64,000 bases of DNA from Trichinella spiralis (lineage: Eukaryota > Nematoda > Enoplea > Trichinellida > Trichinellidae). The DNA lies in contig CM012953.1 in the NCBI GenBank assembly GCA_000181795.3, positions 7,364,034-7,428,033 on the forward strand. Direction: 5' to 3'. Made by a program: the position numbers and the translations under genes. Under the pieces are notes generated by a model. That model worked only from the letters and a program-made list of their open reading frames with translations, was not told the origin of the DNA and did not search any database. Shown here in pieces: positions 27,377 to 33,600 of this stretch (positions within the stretch are counted from its first letter, which is position 1; each line of letters opens with the position of its first letter).

Positions 27377-28447
27377 ATGAACCCAAATTGCAGCGAATAT
27401 GATAAAGTCGACGAAGCCAGCACTTCCAGATCGGTTTCAATACTTCCCAAGTGCAACGGTCACCGTTTGCAAGAGTCCAATGATTCTTCACCTTCCATGT
27501 TCATCGATGAACGCTTTCGAATCATTTCAACTCTGGGCAAAGGTAATTATGGAACCGTTGTCCTTGCTGAAGAGAAAGAAACAAAAAAACGATATGCCAT
27601 CAAGATAATAAAAAAGAGACACTTGATGCTGAGTAGTTTGGGATTCAAGCAAGTGTTCAGTGAAAAGAAAATCTTGCAGATGGCACAGTTTCCCTTTATT
27701 GTCGACTTTTACGGTTCGTTCAAGTCCAATTCCAATTTATTTTTGATGCTAGAATTCGTCCAAGGCGGTGATCTGTTCACGCATTTGAGAAAGATGAACC
27801 GCTTCAGTGAAAATGTGGCTAAATTTTTTGCGATACAAATTGTGCTCGCATTCGAATACTTGCATAAATTGGATATTATTTATCGAGATCTGAAGCCAGA
27901 AAATATTCTCCTAGATCAACACGGATACTGTAAACTGGCTGATTTTGGTATGTCAAAACAATTGAACAACGAGCGCACGTACACAATATGCGGAACATGG
28001 GAATATATAGCACCAGAGATTATCAAAAATCAAGGATACGGTACCAGCATCGATTGGTGGATGTTTGGAATTTTACTGTATGATTTGTGCAATGGCAGAA
28101 CACCTTTCAAAGCAGCATCGCTGAAAGAATTGCAACAAATCATCTTGAAAGGCAAGTACAGAATGTGCCGAAAGTTCTCTGCGCCGTTGAAAAATTTAAT
28201 CAGACAATTATTGAAAACGGATTGCAGAAAACGAATTGGTTGTCGTGGTGGCGGCGCTCGTGAGATCAAATCTCACGCGTGGTTCAACAACATCAACCAG
28301 CGAGCAATACTGCAACGCCGCATCACTTCTCCATTCTTGCCGACCATCAAAGATCGTGATGACATGAACAACTTTGATAATTACGAAGAGACGGCAATTT
28401 CCGAATCGCCAGAGATCGAATTAGAAAATGTTTTCCATGGTTTTTGA
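27377..28447 (+). CDS. PKA-like AGC protein kinase, copy A (single exon)
   Basis: An intronless 356-residue kinase in a genome where most other genes are split. It has Gly loop GKGNYGTV (54-61), VAIK-type Lys K76, alpha-C Glu E96, catalytic YRDLKPEN (D171, N176) and DFG (D189). The activation loop is [10 protein letters not shown], with T203 at the PKA Thr197 position. The C tail has NNFDNYEE and ends FHGF, like the PKA FDDYEEEE...FSEF tail. All catalytic residues are present. W208 replaces the nearly invariant Pro of GTPEY. It resembles cAMP-dependent kinase catalytic subunits; the substrate is unknown. It is about 98% identical in DNA to copy B (31598-32668). Its intronless form suggests retrogene origin. 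Confidence 0.92.
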   Translation: MNPNCSEYDKVDEASTSRSVSILPKCNGHRLQESNDSSPSMFIDERFRIISTLGKGNYGTVVLAEEKETKKRYAIKIIKKRHLMLSSLGFKQVFSEKKILQMAQFPFIVDFYGSFKSNSNLFLMLEFVQGGDLFTHLRKMNRFSENVAKFFAIQIVLAFEYLHKLDIIYRDLKPENILLDQHGYCKLADFGMSKQLNNERTYTICGTWEYIAPEIIKNQGYGTSIDWWMFGILLYDLCNGRTPFKAASLKELQQIILKGKYRMCRKFSAPLKNLIRQLLKTDCRKRIGCRGGGAREIKSHAWFNNINQRAILQRRITSPFLPTIKDRDDMNNFDNYEETAISESPEIELENVFHGF

Positions 28448-28595
28448 AACTTTGTTGCTATAAACTTATCATTGTAATAATACTACTGATACCGTGATAT
28501 ATATTATACAAATATTATTGTTATCTATTATCGAAATAAAATATTCATTTTAAAACAAAAATGTAAATTTGCGTTTCACGATTTCAGTAATATAA
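28448..28595. other. 3' flank of kinase copy A
   Basis: AT-rich sequence with AATAAA near 28535 as a possible polyadenylation signal. It resembles the 3' flank of copy B only loosely. Confidence 0.4.
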
Positions 28596-28599
28596 CCCT

Positions 28600-30039: not shown

Positions 30040-30440
30040 CCAACAACTAACTGCCTGAATTCATATTCATCACATCTGGAGTTCTAGTGGACACTACAAG
30101 CAAATTACTTTAATCATATAAATAATATACACAAAAAAATGTTTGAAAAAAAACGATCTTTTTCCTTGAATATATAACAGTTAAAAGTGCGCATTTTGAA
30201 AATATTCAAAATTTACTACAAAAAACATCATTTCTAAATTGGATAAATTACTTTTACTTAAATAAATAAAAATATATCAATGAGAAATTTGTCTAACTTA
30301 CTCCTCTTTCATTTCAATCTCTACCAGAACAGATAAAACAGTCGGGCAGAATGCCATACTAAGAACAACCGCTTTCTGAACGACCATTCTTGCTTTTTCA
30401 CTATCACTATCAACAATATTCTGATAAAACTGACAAACAT
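30040..30440 (-). pseudogene. Truncated duplicate of TAF1B 5' exons
   Basis: CAACTAACTGCCTGAATTCA and the following bases match TAF1B exon 4 (25400-25440). 30290-30350, with CTTACTCCTC at a donor-like position, matches TAF1B exon 3 (25640-25700). 30370-30440 resembles the exon 1 start region (26130-26190). Exon 2 is mostly gone. No open frame survives. It lies downstream of intact smc-3, as expected for the right-hand end of the duplicated unit. Confidence 0.7.
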
Positions 30441-30687
30441 ATGCAAATTAAAAATCAAAAAATAAAGAATAATCATCAACAATATTGAATGAACTATTTC
30501 CAAAAAAAACAATAGCAACAACTATAGGAAAGCACTTTTAATGTCGCATCGTTAATGGAGTATGATGCATGATAAAACATTAAGTAAAATGTGGTATATT
30601 CAATTCAAAGATTATGCCTAAATTATTACAGACTAATGTTTATCTAAACAGTAGATGAAGAATAAGAGGAAAGCAGAGGAACAATAT
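30441..30687. repeat. Duplicated TAF1B upstream sequence, right copy
   Basis: Matches 26180-26390 upstream of intact TAF1B. Shared stretches include AAAAATCAAAAAATAAA, AGCAACAACTAT, and AAAATGTxxxATATTCAATTCA. In this copy it serves as the 3' flank of smc-3. Confidence 0.6.
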
Positions 30688-33600
30688 TCATCCATGAGTA
30701 GCATCATCTTCCACGAAATCTGCTGCTTCTTCTGCTGTCACGCAATCAATGTGACTCACCTGAATGTAAACAAGACATTTCTGGTAAAAGAGCAGAAATT
30801 TCAGATCAAATATAAAACGGCTAACCTTGTTCCTGAATTTCACCCCGTAGAATTTATCCGCACTTTCTAACAGCTCCCGACGAAATGTTGTTGTTATGAA
30901 TTGCGCACTGCTTGATAATTTGTGAATCATTTCTGTGACAGTGAAAGCAACATCTTAATTGCATTCATAATTATATTTAAACAGTTTTTTCTATACCAGC
31001 TACTGATTTGCGATGTCGAGCGTCTAGGGCAGCATCGATTTCATCAAAGAGATAAAATGGGGCAGGATCGCACTTTTGTATAGCGAAGATCAAAGCCAAT
31101 GCAACCAAAGACTTTTGACCCCCTGATAGCTGCTGCATCTCTTTCGTCTCATCTGCACCACTGAATGCTACCTAAAACAGCAAAGCAGATTAAAGCCCAC
31201 CATGTTTTCGTATTTTTTACAAATAAACAATTATCTGATTCTTGAAACAAAAATCATGTTATTCAACAATAAACATTATAATATACTGATTAACTTGTAA
31301 TGTTAAGTTCTATTTTCCGCTTTTAAGGATGTTTGACTTACGCATTTCTTCCTTCAGTATTAATAAAAGATTCATTCCGTCTGCTGATTAGAAATTATAT
31401 TTGAACACATTGGAAACTTTTCCGGTTTACATACTGTAAGATCCAACAAGACTAAACGTTAAGTACAATTATGAATGCTCTATTTATAAATGTTACTTGC
31501 AATCATATTTACATATTTCAGTCTCTAACTTTTCTTTTATATGATTCAGTTGCTGACCTTTTATTTCTAATTTATATGACTTTGCAGTGAGTGAAAAATG
31601 AACATGAATTACAGCAAATATGATAAAGTCGACGAAGCCAGCACTTCCAGATCGGTTTCAATGCTTCCCAAGTGCAACGGTCACCGTTTGCAAGAGTCCA
31701 ATGATTCTTCACCTTCCATGTTCATCGATGAACGCTTTCGAATCATTTCAACTCTGGGCAAAGGTAATTATGGAACCGTTGTCCTTGCTGAAGAGAAAGA
31801 AACAAAAAAACGATATGCCATCAAGATAATAAAAAAGAGACACTTGATGCTGAGTAGTTTGGGATTCAAGCAAGTGTTCAGTGAAAAGAAAATCTTGCAG
31901 ATGGCACAGTTTCCCTTTATTGTCGACATTCACGGTTCGTTCAAGTCCAATTCCAATTTATTTTTGATGCTAGAATTCGTCCAAGGCGGTGATCTGTTCA
32001 CGCATTTGAGAAAGATGAACCACTTCAGTGAAAATGTGGCCAAATTTTTTGCGATACAAATTGTGCTCGCATTCGAATACTTGCATAAATTGGACATTAT
32101 TTATCGAGATCTGAAGCCAGAAAATATTCTCCTAGATCAACACGGATACTGTAAACTGGCTGATTTTGGTATGTCAAAACAATTGAACAACGAGCGCAAG
32201 TACACAATATGCGGAACATGGGAATATATAGCACCAGAGATTATCAAAAATCAAGGATACGGTACCAGCATCGATTGGTGGATGTTTGGAATTTTACTGT
32301 ATGATTTGTGCAATGGCAGAACACCTTTCAAAGCAGCATCGCTGAACGAATTGCAACAAATCATCTTGAAGGGCAAGTACAGAATGTGCCGAAAGTTCTC
32401 TGCGCCGTTGAAAAATTTAATCAGACAATTATTGAAAACGGATTGCAGAAAACGAATTGGTTGTCGTGGTGGTGGCGCTCGTGAGATCAAATCTCACGCG
32501 TGGTTCAACAACATCAACCAGCGAGCGATACTGCAACGCCGCATCACTTCTCCATTCTTGCCGACCATCAAAGATCGTGATGACATGAACAACTTTGATA
32601 ATTACGAAGAGACGGCAATTTCCGAATCGCCAGAGATCGAATTAGAAAATGTTTTAAATGCTTTTTAAAATTTCTTTGTTAAAATTTATCATTATTGTGC
32701 TACCATCTACAGTTATTCAAATATTGTTGCTATATATCACTGAAGTAAAATATTTCTTAGGCTATTGTTTAACTTGCAATGAGGAAAGAAATTCACGCCT
32801 TGCAATTATTAGTTTGGTCTGTCTAGTACAACTCTGTGCTCAAAAGCGATAAGTTTAATGTTTATGATAATTGCCTACCTTGATTCCGACACCAGTAAAC
32901 TGTTCAACTTGTGGTATGCTGGCCAAATCGACGGCGTTGTCGCCGTTCATCTCCATTGTTTTCATGACAAGATGACCTCGCCCTGTGGGAACTAGCTCGT
33001 GAAAGACTTCTTCAAAATATTTCGAAACCTAAATTAACAATTGTCGTTCATCTGATATATTACTATTGCTTTCCTTTAAGAAACAACAAATACAATACTA
33101 ACCAACTTAAACGTCAACTGTATAGCGTCGTATTTTTTCTGATCCAACTGACTGATCATATCCATAATTGACTGAAATTGCAAAAAAAAAATTATATAAG
33201 TGACAATCGTAATTGTATTTGACGTTTTGATGATATGGAAACCTCAAGATTTCCATCGACTTCATCTTTCCGCTTCAGCAACTTCTCCTTTTGCTCTGAA
33301 AAGCTGACAAACTGATCCAATGCTTTTTTGTTAACATTTTCATATTTTTTCAATTCGTTGTTGCACTGTTCGAGCTGTTTGAACAGCTGAAATAAACAAT
33401 GAAATAAACCCATACATAAAAAATGACATTTACAAAAATATCTAAAAAAATGTCACCTGCTTGGATGAAAGATTATGATATTTGTCGAAAGCGTCCGAAG
33501 GAAGTGAACCGAGTTCTCGAATTTTCTTCATCGTGTCTTCTTTCTGCAGTATGAGAATAATTAAAATTGCACTGCATAGTAGATTAACAGTGATATTAAC

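What the first reader, a model, noticed from the sequence alone, without database searches (positions are those of the whole stretch)
27377..32668. Two kinase copies nearly identical while the rest of the duplicated unit has diverged: gene conversion candidate
By eye the kinase coding sequences differ at about 20 of 1071 bases, including only five synonymous changes in the core, and differences cluster in the first and last few codons. Adjacent duplicated smc-3 and TAF1B sequence is only about 70-80% alike with deletions, and the flanks diverge right at the start and stop codons. Selection cannot easily keep synonymous sites this similar. A conversion tract limited to the coding sequence, perhaps templated by cDNA, explains it better.
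Basis: partly seen in the sequence, partly recalled or inferred. Interest (0 to 1): 0.82.

Follow-up and report, generated by a model that had tools for sequence, protein, structure and literature searches.

The report
Kinase twins homogenised by gene conversion
In a Trichinella roundworm, two neighbouring copies of a kinase gene have most likely been kept almost identical by gene conversion (one copy overwriting the other), while the rest of the same old duplication has drifted far apart; this is a clear example of a known process.

Summary
Two intronless kinase genes (27377-28447 and 31598-32668) differ at 20 of 1071 bases (dS 0.027). Duplicated DNA around them is only 59-79% identical (K2P 0.25-0.61). 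They lie in a tandem duplication of about 5 kb in which smc-3 is decayed in unit 1, the RRN7/TAF1B-like 5' piece is decayed in unit 2, and only the kinase is open in both. Copy 2 sits antisense in an smc-3 intron. A two-rate change-point puts the homogenised tract at 27396-28434, 13-19 bases inside the coding sequence at each end; the ends are as diverged as the flanks. Other Trichinella protein models show two copy types that differ at these ends, and T. nativa and T6 models join the kinase to unit-1 sequence, so the duplication is older than those species. Yet in four taxa models of both copies share taxon-private core residues. Best explanation: recurrent DNA-templated interlocus conversion, confined to the coding sequence because only there is homology still high enough. 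A cDNA template is neither needed nor supported. Selection alone and insertion after duplication are rejected; assembly error is unlikely but unchecked in reads. This is a well-controlled new example of a known process.

The parts
25523..29935 (.). Unit 1 of the tandem segmental duplication: 5' part of the RRN7/TAF1B-like gene, kinase copy 1, decayed partial copy of smc-3
   Evidence: blastn and anchored alignments to unit 2; tblastn of smc-3 stretches finds in-frame stops and frameshifts here
30176..35316 (.). Unit 2 of the tandem duplication: decayed RRN7/TAF1B-like 5' fragment, smc-3 3' half with kinase copy 2 in an intron
27377..28447 (+). Kinase copy 1 (K1), intronless PKA-C-like serine/threonine kinase, 356 aa, type-1 ends (MNPNC...FHGF)
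   Evidence: the ORF listing; Pkinase E=5.9e-72; best PDB matches are PKA catalytic subunits, E 1e-93
31598..32668 (+). Kinase copy 2 (K2), intronless, 356 aa, type-2 ends (MNMNY...LNAF), antisense inside an smc-3 intron
   Evidence: GT donor at 32878 and AG just before 31171 on the minus strand; the stretches on either side match SMC3 residues 1036-1101 and 1101-1159
27396..28434 (+). Homogenised (converted) tract in copy 1: 11 differences in 1039 bases
   Evidence: two-rate change-point on the paired alignment; support 27391-27400 and 28430-28434
31617..32655 (+). The same tract in copy 2 (ungapped register with copy 1)
   Evidence: the kinase alignment has no gaps
26370..27376 (.). Diverged 5' flank of K1 (58.6% to 30615-31597), containing remnants of the last smc-3 exons
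28448..28628 (.). Diverged 3' flank of K1 (63.1% to 32669-32863), alignable from the stop codon onward
28629..29286 (-). smc-3 pseudogene block A in unit 1 (78.8% to unit 2); 9 indels in the block, 7 of them in the open stretch 33195-33452 of unit 2, none a multiple of 3
29558..29935 (-). smc-3 pseudogene block C (hinge region) in unit 1
   Evidence: 78.4% to 34946-35316; the unit 2 stretch 35090-35332 matches SMC_hinge and solved SMC3
30980..31171 (-). smc-3 signature/Walker B exon in unit 2 (host gene); its unit 1 counterpart has in-frame stops
   Evidence: SMC_N E=1.8e-20; SMC3 chains in the PDB, E 2e-26
32858..33028 (-). smc-3 exon stretch in unit 2 just upstream (in gene direction) of the K2-bearing intron
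   Evidence: no Pfam match; PDB SMC3 E 5.3e-7
26019..26165 (-). RRN7/TAF1B-like zinc-ribbon stretch at the left of unit 1; no convincing match in unit 2
   Evidence: Zn_ribbon_RRN7 E=5.8e-8

Best explanation
An intronless PKA-like kinase lay antisense in an intron of smc-3. A tandem duplication of about 5 kb then copied it together with part of smc-3 and the 5' end of the neighbouring RRN7/TAF1B-like gene (duplication shown; retro-origin of the kinase inferred). The duplicated smc-3 piece and the duplicated RRN7/TAF1B-like piece decayed, and noncoding DNA drifted (shown). Only the kinase stayed open in both units. Interlocus gene conversion between the neighbouring copies kept overwriting one kinase with the other, most recently after this species split from the Trichinella taxa compared (inferred from shared private residues and from the copies being closer to each other than to either end-matched ortholog). 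Purifying selection kept the coding sequence similar enough to pair, while neutral flanks passed below the homology that conversion needs. The convertible island therefore shrank to the coding sequence and is now frayed by 13-19 bases at each end (mechanism inferred). The template is most likely the other genomic copy.
For: (1) Kinase synonymous divergence is 0.027 (3 of 115 fourfold sites differ) against flank K2P of 0.25-0.61; p 1.2e-11 to 6e-35. (2) Sharp edges at both ends, gain 272 log units. (3) The first 21 and last 15 bases differ at 9 of 36 positions, like the flanks, and alignable 3' flank begins at the stop, so both copies carried the kinase before the last conversion. (4) The duplication predates speciation: the end types recur in T. 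nativa, T. nelsoni, T8, T6, T9 and T. patagoniensis; a T. nativa model joins the kinase to unit-1 sequence 29340-29498 (50 of 53 residues) and a T6 model to 26472-26522 (14 of 17). (5) The core is nevertheless concerted within taxa: residue 199 here, 31 in T8, 129 and 135 in T. patagoniensis, 311 in T6 are private and shared by two models of the taxon. T. nelsoni P0001 has type-2 ends, but its core is no closer to K2 (326 of 340) than to K1 (328 of 340), while K1 and K2 differ at only 6 of the same 340 residues. (6) The two other genes of the unit act as internal controls: each is recognisable as intact in only one unit and neither is homogenised.
Against: The cross-species data are gene-model proteins, many fragmentary; two (P0005, P0008) have mixed end types, and the T. 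patagoniensis pair (P0008, P0011) rests on P0008 and on a model from a small contig. In T8 the two copies differ at 13 core residues that can be compared, so homogenisation is not equally recent everywhere. Residue 305 differs between two models in both T8 and T. nativa. Donor and direction cannot be told. No reads or population data could be examined.
Confidence: 0.87

Rival explanations
1. cDNA- or RNA-templated conversion: a reverse-transcribed kinase mRNA recombined with the other copy.
For: The tract is confined to an intronless coding sequence. An expressed intronless thymidylate synthase retrocopy is reported in T. pseudospiralis (PMC4022200, abstract), so retroposition has acted in the genus.
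Against: No UTR is included, edges are inside the coding sequence at both ends, and there is no intron to lose, so nothing demands a cDNA. It is not excluded: a cDNA could also recombine within the coding sequence.
Confidence: 0.05
2. Purifying selection alone (codon use, RNA structure or overlapping function) keeps the two coding sequences alike.
For: Core dN/dS is about 0.31 (0.0073/0.0239), so the proteins are constrained.
Against: Synonymous sites are 9-fold or more less diverged than the flanks. Taxa share private changes across copies, which selection alone does not predict. The host gene of copy 1 is decayed, so no antisense splicing constraint is expected there.
Confidence: 0.02
3. Assembly or polishing artefact that made two diverged copies look alike, or that duplicated one copy.
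For: Read depth and phasing could not be checked.
Against: The two copies have strongly diverged flanks; their end types match those found in other Trichinella gene sets, and T8 has a type-1 N-end (P0007), a type-1 C-end and a second copy (P0002) listed with the same longest contig length, 1100865.
Confidence: 0.04
4. The kinase was inserted or copied into one unit after the flanks had diverged (late transposition or local re-duplication).
For: Would also give a young kinase within old flanks.
Against: Position and flanks are collinear, the coding-sequence ends are as diverged as the flanks, and end types are shared across species. Insertion would need the same site and would leave identical ends.
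Confidence: 0.02

Closest known systems
Yeast whole-genome-duplicate ribosomal protein genes (Evangelisti and Conant, as described in PMC3924837; section 3 part 1 of 2 read; the original paper not seen)
   Same: Coding sequences homogenised by gene conversion while noncoding regulatory regions show little evidence of it; both copies kept
   Different: Here a tandem pair of a kinase in a nematode, with two decayed gene pieces inside the same duplication as internal controls
Conversion between Caenorhabditis paralogs such as fog-2/ftr-1 (PMC3966223; section 4 part 1 of 2 read)
   Same: Neighbouring same-orientation paralogs in a nematode; conversion limited by sequence homology
   Different: Surviving tracts there aggregate towards 50-200 nt (range 12-2,958 in a set of 7,829 duplicate pairs); here about 1.04 kb filling nearly the whole coding sequence, possibly several overlapping events
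GOT1p1/GOT1p2 paralogs of Tigriopus californicus (PMC3728101; abstract)
   Same: Mosaic of homogenised and diverged parts within one gene pair
   Different: There, regions of high divergence persist between the copies despite conversion; here divergence is at the two ends and outside

Membership tests
Interlocus gene conversion / concerted evolution | Tract far less diverged at neutral sites than the rest of the same duplication | tested here: met
   dS 0.027 against K2P 0.25-0.61
Interlocus gene conversion / concerted evolution | Sharp tract edges | tested here: met
   support intervals of 10 and 5 bases
Interlocus gene conversion / concerted evolution | Duplication older than speciation, yet paralogs within a taxon share derived states | tested here: met
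   5 of 8 taxon-private columns are counted, in 4 taxa (plus); protein models only. Three T6 columns (20, 44, 56) were dropped because all three models there have the same N-end type. T8 copies still differ at 13 core residues
Interlocus gene conversion / concerted evolution | Segregating conversion tracts in populations | not testable with these tools
   no reads or population data
cDNA-templated conversion | Intron loss or transcript-bounded tract | tested here: not met
   no introns in either copy, so intron loss cannot show; edges lie inside the coding sequence, UTRs excluded
PKA catalytic subunit-like kinases | Kinase domain with catalytic motifs and PKA-like C-tail | tested here: met
   Pkinase E 5.9e-72; PKA-C matched over residues 37-343; GxGxx[18 protein letters not shown] and NFDxYEE stretches present in both (motif meanings recalled)
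PKA catalytic subunit-like kinases | cAMP/regulatory-subunit control | not testable with these tools
   needs biochemistry
Retrogene | Intronless copy of an intron-bearing parent | tested here: inconclusive
   intronless here, while the PKA-C gene of this genome matches in several separate exons; identity to the Trichinella PKA-C protein P0108 is only 45-46%, so the parent is not established; no search was made for poly-A or target-site repeats

The most novel reading that the evidence does not exclude
Conversion of this pair is templated by the kinase transcript (cDNA or RNA-mediated repair), which would explain repeated homogenisation of the coding sequence alone in several Trichinella lineages.
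Probability: 0.05. Interest if true: 0.75.

Novelty: new member of a known kind. Interest (0 to 1): 0.42.

Why it matters
One 5-kb duplication carries parts of three genes of which only one is kept in both copies, and only that one is homogenised, with edges placed to within about ten bases. That makes it a compact natural test of how homology and selection set the limits of gene conversion. It also warns that dating this duplication from the kinase's synonymous sites would make it far too young.

Tried and rejected
Purifying selection alone: rejected because synonymous sites are at least 9-fold less diverged than the flanks and taxa share private changes across copies. Late insertion of the kinase: rejected because coding-sequence ends and adjoining flank are homologous and equally diverged. 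Unequal exchange of a whole unit: rejected because it would have homogenised the flanks. A mosaic of differently aged tracts within the core: tested and not supported; the longest difference-free gap, 265 bases, is unremarkable for 11 random differences (p 0.44, 20,000 draws). A single event and repeated events covering the core cannot be separated.

Species identity: matching the PKA-C protein labelled T. spiralis to this genome did not discriminate, because the exons matched about equally well with the T. pseudospiralis, T. murrelli and T. papuae proteins. I therefore say only that the window is a Trichinella nearer T. nelsoni and T. nativa (95% each) than T. pseudospiralis (87%) by kinase identity. 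Protein searches with two parts of the kinase added two useful models, P0121 and P0122. Pfam did not recognise every smc-3 stretch: of 8 given, 4 matched SMC_N (one above the curated cut-off) and 4 matched no SMC family; 2 of those 4 were not tested further, and the other 2, with one of the SMC_N matches, hit solved SMC3 by sequence. One more stretch given as a possible part of the RRN7/TAF1B-like gene (23367-24002) and another (25806-26015) had no Pfam match. Literature searches: (Trichinella with gene conversion, 31 papers, 20 listed) listed none about this locus by title; (24 papers with at least two of the three terms Trichinella, this kinase name, retrogene; one listed) gave the thymidylate synthase retrogene; some searches were looked through for comparators, of which those from 19 and 34 were used; (2 papers) gave no dates that I used.

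Full report
What is there. The window lies on a large contig of a 53-Mb genome in 14 contigs. The kinase is 95% identical to a protein of Trichinella nelsoni and 87% to one of T. pseudospiralis, so the organism is a Trichinella; I could not fix the species. A DNA search of the genome found two copies of this kinase, both in the window (such counts are lower bounds). The next best genomic match to its protein by E-value is 33% identical over residues 49-304.

The duplication. 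blastn of the window against itself pairs blocks of 25523-29931 with blocks of 30176-35312 in the same order and orientation. Anchored alignment gives identity of 61.5% (left, RRN7/TAF1B-like side, with 434 gap columns), 58.6% (5' of the kinase), 98.1% (kinase), 63.1% (just after the stop), 78.8%, 62.6% (with 1192 gap columns) and 78.4% (three smc-3 blocks). Simple shuffles reach at most 47% for the 5' flank and 54% for the 3' flank (20 shuffles each) and 58% for the middle smc-3 block (10 shuffles). So these weakly alike blocks are real but old homology; the left block was not shuffled but has blastn matches of its own.

The genes. On the minus strand, smc-3 runs leftward from about 40 kb to 30.7 kb. 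Of 8 stretches given to Pfam, 4 match SMC_N, the signature exon 30980-31171 at E 1.8e-20 and three below the curated cut-off. A further stretch matches the SMC hinge. By sequence, five stretches match solved SMC3. Kinase copy 2 lies antisense inside an smc-3 intron with a GT donor at 32878 and an AG just before 31171. The stretches on either side of it match SMC3 residues 1036-1101 and 1101-1159 in the same chain, 7w1m_B, so the intron interrupts otherwise continuous SMC3. In unit 1 the smc-3 stretches can still be found but carry in-frame stops and frameshifts. At the left of unit 1 is a stretch with an RRN7 zinc ribbon, E 5.8e-8; I equate this family with TAF1B from general knowledge. Unit 2 has matching pieces of that region by DNA, but no convincing protein match to the zinc ribbon. 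So in this duplication smc-3 is recognisable as intact only in unit 2, the RRN7/TAF1B-like 5' end only in unit 1, and the kinase in both.

The anomaly. The kinases differ at 20 of 1071 bases. By the Nei-Gojobori count there are 5.7 synonymous differences in 216.8 synonymous sites (dS 0.027) and 13.3 nonsynonymous in 851.2. In codons 8-352 there are 5 synonymous and 6 nonsynonymous differences (dS 0.024, dN 0.007). At fourfold sites 3 of 115 differ. Flank distances are K2P 0.25 to 0.61. A two-rate model puts the low-divergence tract at 27396-28434, with 11 differences in 1039 sites, gaining 272 log-likelihood units over one rate; support intervals are 10 bases on the left and 5 on the right. 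Nine of the 36 bases in the first 21 and last 15 positions differ, the same order as the flanks. Differences within the tract are evenly spread (p 0.44 for the longest gap).

Comparison with other Trichinella. Protein models (sequences) fall into two end types: MNPNC...FHGF as in copy 1, and MN.NY...LNAF as in copy 2. Of 15 models or parts besides K1 and K2 examined, P0004, P0006, P0007, P0011, P0122 and the first part of P0002 show type-1 ends where an end is present; P0001, P0010, P0009 and P0013 show type-2 ends (P0010 with a one-residue variant, LSAF); P0005 and P0008 have a type-1 start with a type-2 end, which may be gene-model fusion across copies; P0003 lacks the start and its end is nearer type 2; P0121 and the second part of P0002 lack diagnostic ends. 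A T. nativa model (P0121) joins the kinase to sequence matching 29340-29498, and a T6 model (P0122) joins a type-1 kinase to sequence matching 26472-26522; both matched unit 1 and not unit 2. The duplication therefore predates the split of these species. The unit-1 decayed sequence is 50 of 53 residues alike between T. nativa and this genome in one translated frame, whereas the two units differ by 21-41% within this genome: the duplication is much older than that split, while the kinase core is not.

In the core, states private to one taxon and shared by two of its models are residue 199 (this genome), 31 (T8), 129 and 135 (T. patagoniensis), and 311 (T6). The T6 pair, P0010 with a type-2 end and P0122 with a type-1 end, is listed with the same longest contig length. 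Columns 20, 44 and 56 are also T6-private, but I do not count them because all three models there have the same N-end type. T. nelsoni P0001 has type-2 ends, yet its core matches K1 at 328 and K2 at 326 of 340 residues, while K1 and K2 differ at six of those residues. This is what concerted evolution predicts (PMC3924837, section 2.2 read). Against it: the T8 copies differ at 13 comparable core residues (11 between P0007 and the second part of P0002, 2 between its two parts), and residue 305 differs between two models in T8 and in T. nativa, so homogenisation is uneven.

Mechanism. Conversion needs high similarity. The review of Caenorhabditis conversion notes that introns diverge faster and may fail the homology threshold, and that long observed tracts may be sums of short ones (PMC3966223, section 4 part 1 read). 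In this locus only the kinase appears constrained in both units, so only it stays above the threshold. This explains without a cDNA why the tract coincides with the coding sequence and frays at both ends. A close precedent is yeast ribosomal protein duplicates, with conversion in coding but little in noncoding regions (PMC3924837, section 3 part 1 read). cDNA templating is not excluded but has no positive evidence.

The kinase. It is PKA-C-like, with the catalytic motifs intact in both copies. It has no introns, while the PKA-C gene of this genome does. Among the 120 best hits listed (of 2158, from a capped candidate set), those outside this Trichinella group are mostly general PKA and RSK kinases at 36-48% identity, so it looks genus-restricted within that list. 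A retro-origin is likely but not shown.

Noticed in passing
18660-22568: A large inverted repeat (arms up to 98.4% identical over 939 bases, 18992-19930 versus 20838-21776); stretches in and beside the right arm match the DDE_Tnp_1_7 transposase family (E 1.3e-10 at 21716-21919 minus; weak, 0.007, at 21371-21712 minus): a transposon-like element.
   Followed up: partly
51512-51726 and 55174-55386: A direct repeat of about 215 bases at 87% identity.
   Followed up: no
Proteins P0002, P0004-P0011, P0013, P0121, P0122 (other Trichinella taxa): Kinase gene models in T. nativa, T. murrelli, T. patagoniensis, T6, T8 and T9 are fragmentary; six of them (P0002, P0004, P0005, P0006, P0010, P0011), of both copy types, lack about residues 261-284. 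This may mean the kinases are decaying in that group, with lesions shared by conversion, or just that gene prediction failed.
   Followed up: partly
31598-32668: Copy 2 differs from copy 1 and from the other Trichinella models at FY111-112IH, R142H and T201K (the last in the activation segment by position; at 142 two models have C), while copy 1 alone has I22 and K250; copy 2 may be relaxing or specialising.
   Followed up: no
41415-41705: An open frame that by eye resembles the C-terminal part of a retrotransposon polyprotein; no Pfam match at E 0.01.
   Followed up: partly
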